From Acidimicrobiales bacterium (GTDB taxonomy: Bacteria > Actinomycetota > Acidimicrobiia > Acidimicrobiales > Acidimicrobilacustridaceae), in assembly GCA_025456085.1 (NCBI GenBank), contig JALOLF010000005.1, positions 1 to 64,000 of the forward strand: a DNA stretch of 64,000 nucleotides, in the 5' to 3' direction. Position numbers and translations under genes: made by a program. Positions 23,053-29,976 of this stretch are shown in pieces; within the stretch, counting starts at the first letter, position 1; each line of letters starts with the position of its first letter. Under the pieces are notes generated by a model. It was not told where the DNA came from. It saw only the letters and a list, made by a program, of their open reading frames with translations, and made no database searches.

Positions 23053-23319
23053 ATGGAACTGGACGCGCTCGCCCTGCGGGAGGCCGCCGCACAGCTCGTG
23101 CGGGAGGCCGCGCACCTCCTCCACGGCCTCCCCGAGGTGACGGCGCTGGCCGGCGAGGAGACCTGGACCGGCCAGCGGGCGCAGGACTTCGTCACCGACC
23201 TGACCGCCACCCACCGCGATCTGGCGATCGGGCCGCTGTCGGTCCTCGACGAGCTGCTGGCGGCAGCCGCCCGACTCGAGACCCGGGCGGCGCTCATCGA
23301 TCTGGCTCCGCCGGGCTGA
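23053..23319 (+). CDS. Small WXG100-like protein
   Basis: An 88-residue all-helical protein with a central WTG in EETWTGQRAQDF, the position and spacing of the WXG turn between two helices in ESX/WXG100 proteins. Such proteins are small dimeric substrates of type VII secretion. No C-terminal YxxxD/E signal is seen. TATTTT lies six bases before the ATG and TTGCTT is further upstream, in an unusually AT-rich patch, so it has its own leaderless promoter. The 3' end overlaps the convergent gene by 26 bases. The gene belongs to the ESX-like block 23053-29976. Confidence 0.7.
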   Translation: MELDALALREAAAQLVREAAHLLHGLPEVTALAGEETWTGQRAQDFVTDLTATHRDLAIGPLSVLDELLAAAARLETRAALIDLAPPG

Positions 23320-25150
23320 CGACGCCGGGGGTCAACCCGTAGACGTCGCCGAGCTCGGCCAGGAGCGGCGCGTCGGTGGCCATGTCCTGGCGGACGTACC
23401 AGTCGGCGAACGCGTCCCGCGCGTCGTCGTCGAGCTCGGCGAGCGCCCGCAGCTCGCTGGTGTCGGGCCGCGCCGGGTCGCGCAGCAGCATCGTCGGCAC
23501 CTCCAGGCGCCCGCCCCATCCCTCGAAGACCGCGTTGCGCGCCCGGTTGGCCCAGAGGGCTTGGAGCGCCGCGTACCGCAGCTCGAGGTGCAGCCTGGCG
23601 TCGCCCCTTCCCACGTGGTCGACGAGCAGCTCGTAGCCGTGTTCGGTGGGCGGCAGCAGCGCGTCGACCACCGGGCCCCAGAACAGGGTGCCGCTCGAGG
23701 CCACGCCGTCGGCGCGCACACCGTGCATCCACGCCGGCGCGGTGACGTTGGCCGTGACGAGCAGCGTCGCCAGACCGAGCCCCGTGACCAGCCGGGAGCG
23801 GTCCCCGGCACGGGCCTCGTCCTCGTTGTGTGCGCCGTCCGCCTCACCGAGCACGATGGCCACGTCGACGTGGCGGGCCACGGACGCGACCACATCGGCG
23901 CCCTCGGGGGAACGGGGCTGCAGGCTCAGACGATCGAGGTGGCCGAGCACCCAGCCACGCGTCACCTCGGCGAGCCGGTGCCGGGCCTCGGGGTGCAGCG
24001 CCGTGTAGAGCAGATACCCCGTCGCGCTGGCCTCGTCGAGCTCGGGCAACGCATCGACGACGGGCCCGTCGAGGCCGGCGACGTCGCTGCCGAACGAGGC
24101 CAGATAGGGCTGGGCCACGTCCGCCAGCACGGCGTGGGCGAGGGGAGGAAGGTCGCGGGTCGCCGCCACCCACCGAACCAGGCGGGTCATGGCCTCGTCG
24201 GCGTCCGCAGCGCCGCCGGGACGGGTGCCGGCGATCAGGACCCGGCCCAGCGCCCGCCCGCCGTCGCCGTAGGCGAGGTCCGATCGCGCCAGGTCGTCGA
24301 GATCGACCGTGCGCAGGACCTGCGTCGCCGCCTGCGGGCTCCCCGCCAACGCCGTCAGGACGAGCAGCCGGCAGTCGGCGCCCGGGGTGCCGACCGTCGC
24401 CGCGACACCGACACCGGGGAGTCGGTTCAGGGGCAGCACCAGCAACTCCACCGCATCCACCAGAACCTCGTCGGCCCATCGGGTGCCGGGCAGGAACAGC
24501 AGGGCCAGCTCGTTGTGCGCGGTCGGGTCGTCGAAGGCCGCGGGGTCCGCGGCGACGAGGTCGGCGAGCGTCCAGGGCAACGAGCCGACCTGCGACGCCG
24601 TGGCCAGCACGCGCACCAGACCGTGGGCGACGGCCAGCCGGTCGCGCCGCTGCTCGTCGTCGGCGGGCAGGGCGAGCAGGTCCCGCCACCACCCGAGCTG
24701 GTCGACCACGGCCTCGGGGCGCAACGCCGACGCCAGCGGCACGGCGAAGGCCGGGTTGGAGGACCACAGCACGGCGAGACGGGCGAACGTCGTGCCGTCC
24801 CCGAACAGCAGCGACGCCAGCGCGGCACCGGCGGCCGCCCGGGCCGCGTCGTCATCGGCCCCCGCGCCCACCGACGGCTCGAACGCCCCGGAGTCCAGCC
24901 GCAGGCCGCTGGAGCTGCCGGTCGCCTCCCAGCACACGACCTCGGCCACGATCCGGGCGAGCTGCGCCTGCTGCTGAGCGCACCACGCGGCCCGACGGGC
25001 CACGACACCGACCGGGGCAGGGTCCTCGCCCACCGACTCGAGCAGCGGGCGCACCCGCACGGCGGTGTCGTGCAGCGACACCGCCAACCCGCCGAGGCGG
25101 TCGACCAGCTCGGCCGCACGACCCAGGTGGATCGACACCAGCTCACTCAT
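23294..25150 (-). CDS. Large helical protein of unknown function in the ESX-like locus
   Basis: A 618-residue Ala/Leu/Asp-rich protein with no membrane helix, signal peptide or recognised enzyme motif. Its N-terminal helix (LVSIHLGRAAEL) closely resembles that of the divergently encoded WXG100 protein (LVGVNLAQMVEL), so the first 90 residues may be an ESX-type targeting or partner-binding helix pair. A segment SSNPAFAVPLASAL recalls the DUF6571-type proteins of actinobacteria, but that is recalled from memory and unsure. AGGAGT precedes the ATG at 25150. It may be a secreted substrate or a chaperone of the adjacent ATPase. Confidence 0.65.
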   Translation of the reverse strand: MSELVSIHLGRAAELVDRLGGLAVSLHDTAVRVRPLLESVGEDPAPVGVVARRAAWCAQQQAQLARIVAEVVCWEATGSSSGLRLDSGAFEPSVGAGADDDAARAAAGAALASLLFGDGTTFARLAVLWSSNPAFAVPLASALRPEAVVDQLGWWRDLLALPADDEQRRDRLAVAHGLVRVLATASQVGSLPWTLADLVAADPAAFDDPTAHNELALLFLPGTRWADEVLVDAVELLVLPLNRLPGVGVAATVGTPGADCRLLVLTALAGSPQAATQVLRTVDLDDLARSDLAYGDGGRALGRVLIAGTRPGGAADADEAMTRLVRWVAATRDLPPLAHAVLADVAQPYLASFGSDVAGLDGPVVDALPELDEASATGYLLYTALHPEARHRLAEVTRGWVLGHLDRLSLQPRSPEGADVVASVARHVDVAIVLGEADGAHNEDEARAGDRSRLVTGLGLATLLVTANVTAPAWMHGVRADGVASSGTLFWGPVVDALLPPTEHGYELLVDHVGRGDARLHLELRYAALQALWANRARNAVFEGWGGRLEVPTMLLRDPARPDTSELRALAELDDDARDAFADWYVRQDMATDAPLLAELGDVYGLTPGVVSPAEPDR

Positions 25151-28700: not shown

Positions 28701-29976
28701 CGACGGCGCCGGCCTCGCCGGCCTCGCCGGGGTCCCCCACGTGGCCGACGTCGTCGGCATCGACGAGCGGGCGCGCCTCGCACGCCTCGTCGACCGCCTC
28801 GGCGGCGAGCTGCGCCGCCGGCGAACCGCCGGACGGACGGGTGGTGATCCCCACGGTGGCCCCGGCGAGGTGACGACCCTCCTGGTGATCGATCAGTTCA
28901 GCTCGTTGCGAGCGGCCTGCGACGACCTCGACGGGTTCCGCCTGTTGGACGACCTGCTCGTCGTGGTCCGCGACGGCAGTCGCGTCGGCATCCACACCGT
29001 GCTCACCACGGACCGACCCGCCGGTGTGCCACCCACGGTCGTGGCCCGCGCCCCCGAACGCATCGTGCTGCGACTCGCCGACCCGGCTGACGCCGCGCTG
29101 GTGGGCCTGCCCCGCACCGCCCTGCCGACCGACCCACCGCCAGGCCGGGGCGTCACCGGCGACGGTCACGAGATCCAGCTCACCACGCTCGAGCCCCACG
29201 AGCTCGTGACCGCAGTCGACGACGTGTGCCGCCGATGGCGCGATCGCCCCGTCCGGGCCGTGCCGGTGCGGCTCCTCCCCCACCACGTCGACCCCGCCAC
29301 CCTGGACCCCCGACTGGGGCTCGGCGAGCCGGACGGGCGTGGTCCCTGGCAGCTGCCCGTCGCACTGGCCGACGAGCCGACCGGCGCCACGGCGCTGCTG
29401 ACCCTCCCTCCCGGGCGACCGACGCTCGTGGCCGGTCCACCGGGATCGGGACGGTCCGGCGCGCTCGCGCAGCTCCGACGCAGCGTCGGGGGCCGCCACG
29501 ACCTGACCGTGGTGGAGGTCGGCGGCCGACACGGCATCGGCCTGCGCGCCCTGCCCGCGGCGCTCGCCCGGGTCGTGGACCGCCACGTCCTGGTGCTGGT
29601 CGACGATGTCCACCGCCTGGTGACCGATCCCGCCGAGGAGGCGCTACTCGGCGCGCTGGTCGCCGCGGCGGCGCCCCGTCTGCGCGTCGTGCTGGCTGCG
29701 GACTCGGACCGTCTCCGCCACCCGGGCGATCCCCTGACCCGCGCCCACCGCCCTCTGCAGGGCCTGCTGCTGCACCCCGAGGGTCCCTTCGACGGCTCGA
29801 GCTGGGCGGCACCGCTCCCGCGCCTGCCCCACGAGACCTGGCCCCCCGGACGGGGCCTGCTGATCACCCCCGGCCGCGCCCGGCTCGTCCAGGTGGCGGC
29901 GGCGTGCGCCTCAGAGCTCGGGGAGCTGCCGGGCGAGCGCGTCGGGATCCTCGCGCCCGACGGTGTAGGGGCGTAG
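25714..29976 (+). CDS. EssC/EccC-like type VII secretion ATPase
   Basis: A 1420-residue membrane ATPase of the FtsK/SpoIIIE group. An N-terminal region of about 180 residues includes an FHA-like domain ([13 protein letters not shown] and PEHARLDV), a Pro-rich linker follows, then two membrane helices at about residues 225-265, then three ATPase domains. Domain 1 has an intact Walker A with K624 ([12 protein letters not shown]) and Walker [10 protein letters not shown]. Domains 2 and 3 have GMPGSGTT (T970) and GPPGSGRS (R1247) in place of the lysine. FHA plus two helices plus three ATPases matches Firmicutes EssC more than mycobacterial EccC. The start could be the GTG at 25711. Its 3' end overlaps the convergent lacZ by 66 bases. 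Confidence 0.85.

What the first reader, a model, noticed from the sequence alone, without database searches (positions are those of the whole stretch)
23053..29976. Reduced ESX/type VII secretion locus inserted between lysA and hom
Two WXG100-like genes, an unknown 618-residue helical protein and an EssC-like ATPase with FHA-like N-terminus sit together. EccB, EccD, EccE, EsaA/EssA/EssB, and mycosin are absent from the window. The block breaks an otherwise conserved argS-lysA-hom-thrC order, which suggests insertion. The ATPase layout resembles the Firmicutes system more than the actinobacterial one, so this may be a separate minimal type VII branch.
Basis: partly seen in the sequence, partly recalled or inferred. 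Interest (0 to 1): 0.8.

Follow-up and report, generated by a model that had tools for sequence, protein, structure and literature searches.

The report
Minimal type VII secretion gene cluster
This is a stripped-down protein-export locus of uncultured actinobacteria: one membrane ATPase that carries its own built-in ubiquitin-like part, plus small WXG-type partner proteins, kept at the same chromosomal spot in several genera, which makes the question of the smallest working type VII export machine testable.

Summary
The four genes are real and lie where stated. The ATPase (25714-29976) is a type VII ATPase of neither the EccC nor the EssC kind. It belongs to an actinobacterial clade whose N-terminus is a fused ubiquitin-like (YukD/EccD-type) domain followed by an FHA domain. 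The same WXG-like / ~600-aa / WXG100 / ATPase block sits between hom and lysA in four genomes of three genera, and WXG100+ATPase lies beside hom in two further families. It is therefore an old locus with patchy loss, not a private insertion. EccB and EssB/YukC are missing from all 296 class genomes sampled; EccD and a dedicated mycosin are missing from this genome. A LysM/TcpC-like membrane pair that accompanies the module in other families is missing here too. The orthologues carry an adjacent membrane kinase and an intact phosphothreonine motif in the FHA domain. The window has lost both. The described subtype T7SSd was reported to lack any ubiquitin-like protein; fusion into the ATPase may explain that. 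Best reading: a minimal T7SS exporting the WXG100 and probably the 618-aa protein with its 88-aa partner. Secretion itself is inferred. New variant of a known kind.

The parts
23053..23319 (+). 88-aa WXG-like small protein, candidate co-secretion partner (Lap/EsxB-like)
   Evidence: W38 and G40 invariant in four orthologues, which are 123-130 aa in L021, L022 and L077
23294..25150 (-). 618-aa all-helical protein: N-terminal helical hairpin (residues 9-77) plus helical solenoid (about 100-440); candidate substrate or adaptor
   Evidence: orthologues of 577-592 aa at the same place, 29-32% identical; AF2 model mean pLDDT 63; no Pfam or NCBIfam match
25257..25556 (+). 99-aa WXG100 (EsxA/TsxA-like), most conserved gene of the block
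   Evidence: 67-70% identity across genera, tail NENRRRSNLxLNGxDA conserved; profile finds 32 of 296 class genomes
25714..29976 (+). 1420-aa EccC/EssC-type ATPase (upstream alternative start 25663)
   Evidence: TIGR03928/03924/03925; PDB best match EccC-type 4nh0, E 2e-69; tree
25714..25938 (+). fused ubiquitin-like domain of the ATPase (residues 1-75)
   Evidence: AF2 pLDDT mostly 65-83, beta-beta-alpha-beta-beta-beta; YukD 2bps Z 7.1, rmsd 2.2 A, 67 residues; family profile vs PDB: ubiquitin-like proteins, E 1e-5 to 1e-3
25963..26253 (+). degenerate FHA domain of the ATPase (about residues 84-180)
   Evidence: PF16697 E 0.0017; GA...LAPEH here where orthologues read GR...SRxH; low-confidence in the AF2 model
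26359..26478 (+). predicted membrane segment of the ATPase, probably two helices (about residues 216-255)
   Evidence: hydropathy and alignment
27565..27588 (+). intact Walker A of ATPase domain 1 (GTTGSGKS); Walker B IVVIDE at 27883-27900
28600..28623 (+). degenerate Walker A of domain 2 (GMPGSGTT)
29434..29457 (+). degenerate Walker A of domain 3 (GPPGSGRS)
21648..22958 (-). hom (homoserine dehydrogenase), conserved left neighbour
29911..33117 (-). GH2 beta-galactosidase-like gene, between the block and lysA; also between lysA and hom in five relatives
33192..34481 (-). lysA, conserved right neighbour

Best explanation
The block encodes a minimal type VII export module. Shown here by sequence: an EccC/EssC-type ATPase with one intact ATPase site; a ubiquitin-like domain fused to its N-terminus; a WXG100-type protein; a second small WXG-like protein; and a 618-aa protein predicted to be helical with an N-terminal hairpin; all kept together at one site across genera. 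Inferred: the ATPase oligomerises through its own membrane helices. Its built-in ubiquitin-like domain does in cis what EccD or YukD does elsewhere, docking on the ATPase stack. The WXG100 binds the ATPase through its conserved C-terminal tail and is exported. The 618-aa protein, paired with the 88-aa WXG-like protein, is the likely larger substrate. In relatives a bitopic membrane kinase acts through the FHA domain; this lineage has lost that arm.
For: Co-conservation of the genes at the same site in four genomes of three genera. Homologous ATPase next to WXG100 in many genomes of the class and in Streptomyces and Curtobacterium. ATPase family. Separate clade. Ubiquitin-like N-terminus by model, fold search and profile. 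Kinase adjacent in G024, G025 and G028, pseudokinase orthologue in G036, none in this genome. EccB, YukC, EccD and a LysM/TcpC pair absent. Literature: T7SS types share ATPase plus WXG100 (PMC11217815); the FHA region of YukB contacts the pseudokinase YukC (PMC9600267).
Against: No secretion data. The WXG100 is below Pfam and NCBIfam cut-offs. The 618-aa protein has no recognised toxin or enzyme domain. The FHA part is not modelled with confidence. The MAG is 93.5% complete, so a missing component could lie in a gap. EccE, EsaA and EssA were not searched. The ATPase is the only protein of the block with predicted membrane helices, so how a full envelope path is made is unexplained.
Confidence: 0.7

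Rival explanations
1. It is a decayed T7SSa (ESX) locus that has lost EccB, EccD, EccE and mycosin.
For: Actinobacterial host; the ATPase matches EccC models at 364 and 278 bits.
Against: EccB is over cut-off in 0 of 296 class genomes, so there is no recent ESX ancestor nearby. The tree rejects grouping with EccC (p-AU 0.0058). Frames are intact and the WXG100 is strongly conserved, which decay does not predict.
Confidence: 0.06
2. It is a member of T7SSd (or T7SSe) that has been further reduced.
For: T7SSd is actinobacterial with WXG100, FHA-ATPase and membrane kinase (PMC11217815); the orthologous loci have WXG100, canonical FHA and kinase. T7SSd/e-like loci (L023+L114, L104, L111) have ATPases with the same kind of N-terminus.
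Against: No TsdI- or TsdH-like gene was seen at the orthologous loci. In the tree the window clade is apart from the L023/L104/L111 clade. No Olsenella or Bifidobacterium TsdC sequence was available to test.
Confidence: 0.15
3. The WXG100-ATPase pair no longer exports protein but works in the cell, for example in DNA movement or as a regulator at the membrane.
For: No envelope components; FtsK-type ATPase; FHA and ubiquitin-like domains are often regulatory.
Against: WXG100 conserved at 67-70% with its tail intact while the ATPase is at about 40%, as expected for a core substrate or signal. Related loci carry abhydrolase proteins with helical N-termini that look like exported cargo.
Confidence: 0.1
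4. It is a recent horizontal insertion between lysA and hom.
For: lysA and hom are under 200 bp apart in G022.
Against: Same block and order at the same site in other genera; WXG100+ATPase hom-adjacent in two other families; G036 keeps the orthologous kinase-fold gene and GH2 at the site without the T7 genes, pointing to loss; no composition shift that points to foreign DNA.
Confidence: 0.05

Closest known systems
T7SSd/T7SSe (Garrett, Higginson, Palmer 2024, PMC11217815)
   Same: WXG100, EssC-like ATPase with FHA; membrane kinase in the orthologous loci
   Different: no TsdH/TsdI seen at the locus; kinase lost in the window; a ubiquitin-like domain is fused to the ATPase, whereas T7SSd was reported to have none; the window clade is separate in the tree from T7SSd/e-like loci
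T7SSb (Ess/Yuk: EssC/YukB, EssB/YukC, YukD, EsxA)
   Same: ATPase with FHA and a ubiquitin-like element; kinase-fold bitopic partner in relatives
   Different: YukC absent class-wide; the ubiquitin-like part is fused rather than separate; ATPase not grouped with EssC
T7SSa (ESX)
   Same: EccC-type ATPase; EccD carries a ubiquitin-like domain that contacts EccC
   Different: no EccB, EccD or dedicated mycosin; FHA present; ATPase not grouped with EccC
Uncharacterised 'FtsK/SpoIIIE domain-containing protein' + WXG100 loci of Streptomyces, Curtobacterium, Rothia
   Same: same ATPase architecture (UBL-FHA-FNRPPR motif-TM-ATPase domains), mostly beside an annotated WXG100 (none annotated in the Rothia stretch)
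   Different: different neighbours; separate subclade

Membership tests
T7SS in general | EccC/EssC-type membrane ATPase | tested here: met
   TIGR03928 396 bits, TIGR03924 364 bits over long stretches though under the equivalog cut-offs; PDB EccC 4nh0 E 2e-69; membrane segment
T7SS in general | WXG100 protein encoded beside the ATPase | tested here: inconclusive
   W-x-G protein of hairpin size, conserved and adjacent, but 15.1 of 27.3 bits in Pfam and 16.2 of 44.85 in NCBIfam
T7SS in general | ATPase-dependent secretion of the WXG100 | not testable with these tools
   needs cells
T7SSa (ESX) | EccB | tested here: not met
   0 of 296 class genomes over cut-off, own genome none; no named control genome rang, so sensitivity was not shown in that call
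T7SSa (ESX) | EccD | tested here: not met
   none in G000, G024, G025, G028, G033; both positive-control plasmids over cut-off
T7SSa (ESX) | mycosin | tested here: not met
   only generic subtilases far below cut-off; an ESX-bearing control plasmid scored 275 of 278.75 bits
T7SSa (ESX) | EccE | not tested
T7SSa (ESX) | ATPase in the EccC clade | tested here: not met
   p-AU 0.0058 against grouping with two EccC proteins
T7SSb | EssB/YukC | tested here: not met
   0 of 296 class genomes; control B. subtilis found
T7SSb | EsaA and EssA | not tested
T7SSb | stand-alone YukD | not tested
   none seen in the block; no genome-wide search
T7SSb | ATPase in the EssC clade | tested here: not met
   p-AU 7.8e-5 against grouping with one EssC
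T7SSd | FHA on the ATPase with conserved phosphothreonine motif | tested here: not met
   degenerate in the window (GA...LAPEH); intact in orthologues L021, L022
T7SSd | membrane kinase TsdD | tested here: not met
   absent from the locus and not found in the genome; present at G024, G025 and G028 orthologous loci
T7SSd | large envelope protein TsdI and small TsdH at the locus | tested here: not met
   none in the window block or in 18-19 kb around L021 and L022 by gene calls
T7SSd | ATPase in the TsdC clade | not testable with these tools
   no Olsenella or Bifidobacterium TsdC sequence could be fetched

The most novel reading that the evidence does not exclude
A single polypeptide (ubiquitin-like domain, FHA, two membrane helices, ATPase domains) is the whole membrane machine of a working type VII system, and the 'missing' ubiquitin-like protein of actinobacterial T7SSd-type systems is fused into the ATPase.
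Probability: 0.3. Interest if true: 0.8.

Novelty: new variant of a known kind. Interest (0 to 1): 0.55.

Why it matters
It suggests that two elements thought to be separate parts of type VII machines, the ATPase and the YukD/EccD ubiquitin-like module, can be one protein, and that the other known envelope parts can be missing. That gives a very small system in which to ask what is needed for export and what forms the pore. It offers a concrete, checkable answer to why T7SSd was reported to lack a ubiquitin-like protein. The paired loss of kinase and FHA phosphothreonine motif suggests a removable phospho-switch.

Tried and rejected
Class-wide ATPase search by whole protein failed twice on the server. 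A first genome-contig scan with the single ATPase found nothing; the WXG100 alignment then gave three loci. Plasmid and phage searches gave only matches under 60% identity, none covering 80% of the query, so no mobile carrier was found. Considered and rejected: private insertion; decayed ESX; kinase retained elsewhere in the genome (only a GDWDCDG-domain protein without kinase motifs). The idea that the 618-aa protein is a DUF6571-type or other known family was not supported; armadillo-like hits at Z up to 8 are no better than common helical arrangements. Kinase/FHA association: 8 of 8 kinase loci have a canonical FHA, 0 of 24 non-canonical ones have a kinase (Fisher 1.6e-5), but only 3:0 in phylogenetically independent pairs, so it stays a hypothesis. 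Structure jobs were kept to the window and the search for related loci sequences, which left alignments of four rows.

Full report
What is in the window. Gene calls and ORF lists give, left to right: thrC 20237-21634 (-), hom 21648-22958 (-), an 88-aa gene 23053-23319 (+), a 618-aa gene 23294-25150 (-, tail-to-tail overlap of 26 bp), a 99-aa gene 25257-25556 (+), an ATPase 25714-29976 (+), a GH2 beta-galactosidase-like gene 29911-33117 (-), lysA 33192-34481 (-) and argS 34478-36085 (-). So the block and a GH2 gene separate lysA from hom. The window is contig C251 of a 4.85 Mb, 279-contig, 93.5% complete genome. Its nearest named relatives are MAGs, one labelled Microthrixaceae, so the class is probably Acidimicrobiia (inference).

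The ATPase. NCBIfam scores it as EssC (396 bits) and EccC (364 and 278 bits), under all curated cut-offs. The best solved relative by sequence is an EccC-type protein, 4nh0. Domain 1 has an intact Walker A and B; domains 2 and 3 have lost the Walker lysine. Residues 1-75 are a ubiquitin-like domain. The AF2 model has pLDDT mostly 65-83 there, with the beta-grasp order. The best VIA-align matches are ubiquitin-like folds, among them YukD of Bacillus subtilis (2bps, Z 7.1, rmsd 2.2 A, 67 residues), tied with many others; Foldseek agrees, below its significance line. A profile of 16 N-termini from the family finds ubiquitin, SAMP2 and archaeal ubiquitin-like proteins in the PDB at E 1e-5 to 1e-3. 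Pfam YukD itself is hit only marginally, by one member. An FHA domain follows. In L022 it passes the Pfam cut-off. In the window the phosphothreonine motif is gone.

Same site in relatives. Among 37 family genomes, five carry such an ATPase. In G024 (L021) and G028 (L022) the order hom / WXG-like / ~590-aa (-) / WXG100 / ATPase / kinase lies on the hom-lysA stretch; in G028 several further genes lie between the kinase and lysA. In G025 a contig shows ATPase, kinase C-terminus and lysA tail, and L077 shows the hom end of the same block; L077 may be the same assembly as G025. Identities to the window are 67-70% for the WXG100, 29-32% for the 618-aa protein and about 40% for the ATPase. In other family members lysA and hom are under 200 bp apart (G022) or separated by a GH2 gene (G026, G030, G032, G033, G036) or by other genes (G034, G035). 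G036 keeps the orthologous, now pseudo-, kinase beside the GH2 gene without the T7 genes. In two other families the WXG100 and ATPase lie next to hom (L058/G228; L072/G213). This fits an old locus with differential loss; recent insertion does not explain it.

Class-wide picture. A WXG100 profile matched 32 of 296 genomes. Fetched loci repeatedly show WXG100, often a second small WXG-like gene, and the UBL-type ATPase. EccB is over cut-off in none of 296 genomes and YukC in none. EccD is absent from five family genomes while two control plasmids are found. In several other families a divergent pair, a LysM membrane protein and a TcpC-like protein, flanks the module. That TcpC-like protein is absent from the window's genome and four family members while three genomes known to have it are found.

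Phylogeny. With two EccC, one EssC and 41 UBL-type ATPases, the window groups with L022, L021 and L003 (SH-aLRT 91), within the UBL-type group. Holding the window with EccC or EssC is rejected. The outgroups are few and on long branches.

Kinase and FHA. Orthologous loci carry a kinase-fold protein with a shared C-terminal domain, predicted extracytoplasmic; a membrane helix is clear in L021 and L087 and not scored in L022. No orthologue is in the window's genome. Across loci, kinase presence goes with an intact FHA motif (8/8 versus 0/24, Fisher 1.6e-5), but only three independent contrasts support it. In T7SSb the FHA of YukB binds the pseudokinase YukC (PMC9600267), so the parallel is plausible.

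Known systems. PMC11217815 defines T7SSc-j and states that T7SSd has WXG100, FHA-ATPase, kinase, TsdH and TsdI but no ubiquitin-like protein. The window lacks kinase, TsdH and TsdI and has the ubiquitin-like domain fused. T7SSd/e-like loci fetched here (L023+L114, L104, L111) also have this kind of ATPase N-terminus. So the fusion may be general in Actinomycetota, and the reported absence may be a matter of where it was looked for. PMC1779556 records actinobacterial YukD only as a fusion to a 12-helix membrane domain. I found no paper that describes fusion to the ATPase, in a library that lacks most subscription journals.

618-aa protein. It is predicted all-helical, with an N-terminal hairpin like those of WXG/LXG proteins and a solenoid-like body; nothing recognisable by sequence or fold. 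Substrate with the 88-aa protein as partner is the best guess, by analogy with the small partner proteins of T7SS substrates (PMC11217815).

Verdict. A real, conserved, minimal T7SS-type locus with a fused ubiquitin-like domain; a new variant of a known kind. Secretion and mechanism are inferred.

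Noticed in passing
window 29911-33117 (-): GH2 beta-galactosidase-like gene whose 3' end overlaps the ATPase 3' end by 66 bp; a GH2 gene sits between lysA and hom in five relatives too.
   Followed up: partly
window 17077-17952 and 18130-18984 (+): Two tandem secreted-looking proteins, 64% identical over 264 columns, without assigned function.
   Followed up: no
window 56558-58955 (-): Pair of ArsA/Get3-like ATPases with a small DUF3107-like gene; similar small genes sit next to the T7 ATPase in L061 and L066-L070.
   Followed up: no
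L059, L062, L064, L065, L066-L070: Divergent membrane genes, LysM and TcpC (VirB8-like, PF12642) proteins, beside the WXG100-ATPase operon: a possible new envelope component set of this system in other families.
   Followed up: partly
L024 (G028:C215) and L071 (G168:C178): Second, different T7-type loci with EspG-like proteins (PF14011 E 2e-4 in L024), WXG pair and UBL-type ATPase, without EccB.
   Followed up: partly
L059:14740-16257 and L064:14312-15871: Abhydrolase_8 proteins with helical N-terminal regions directly downstream of the ATPase; candidate exported lipase-like cargo.
   Followed up: partly
L023+L114 (G033:C14), L104, L111: T7SSd/e-like clusters in Actinomycetota with kinase, FHA protein and UBL-type ATPase (PPM phosphatase in L114 and L111; WXG100 in L023 and L111); L111 is deposited as 'Bacteriophage sp.' from human faeces but looks bacterial.
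   Followed up: partly
L132 (G000:C255:468-1022, -): Protein with the GDWDCDG C-terminal domain of the kinase but without kinase motifs, in the window's own genome.
   Followed up: partly
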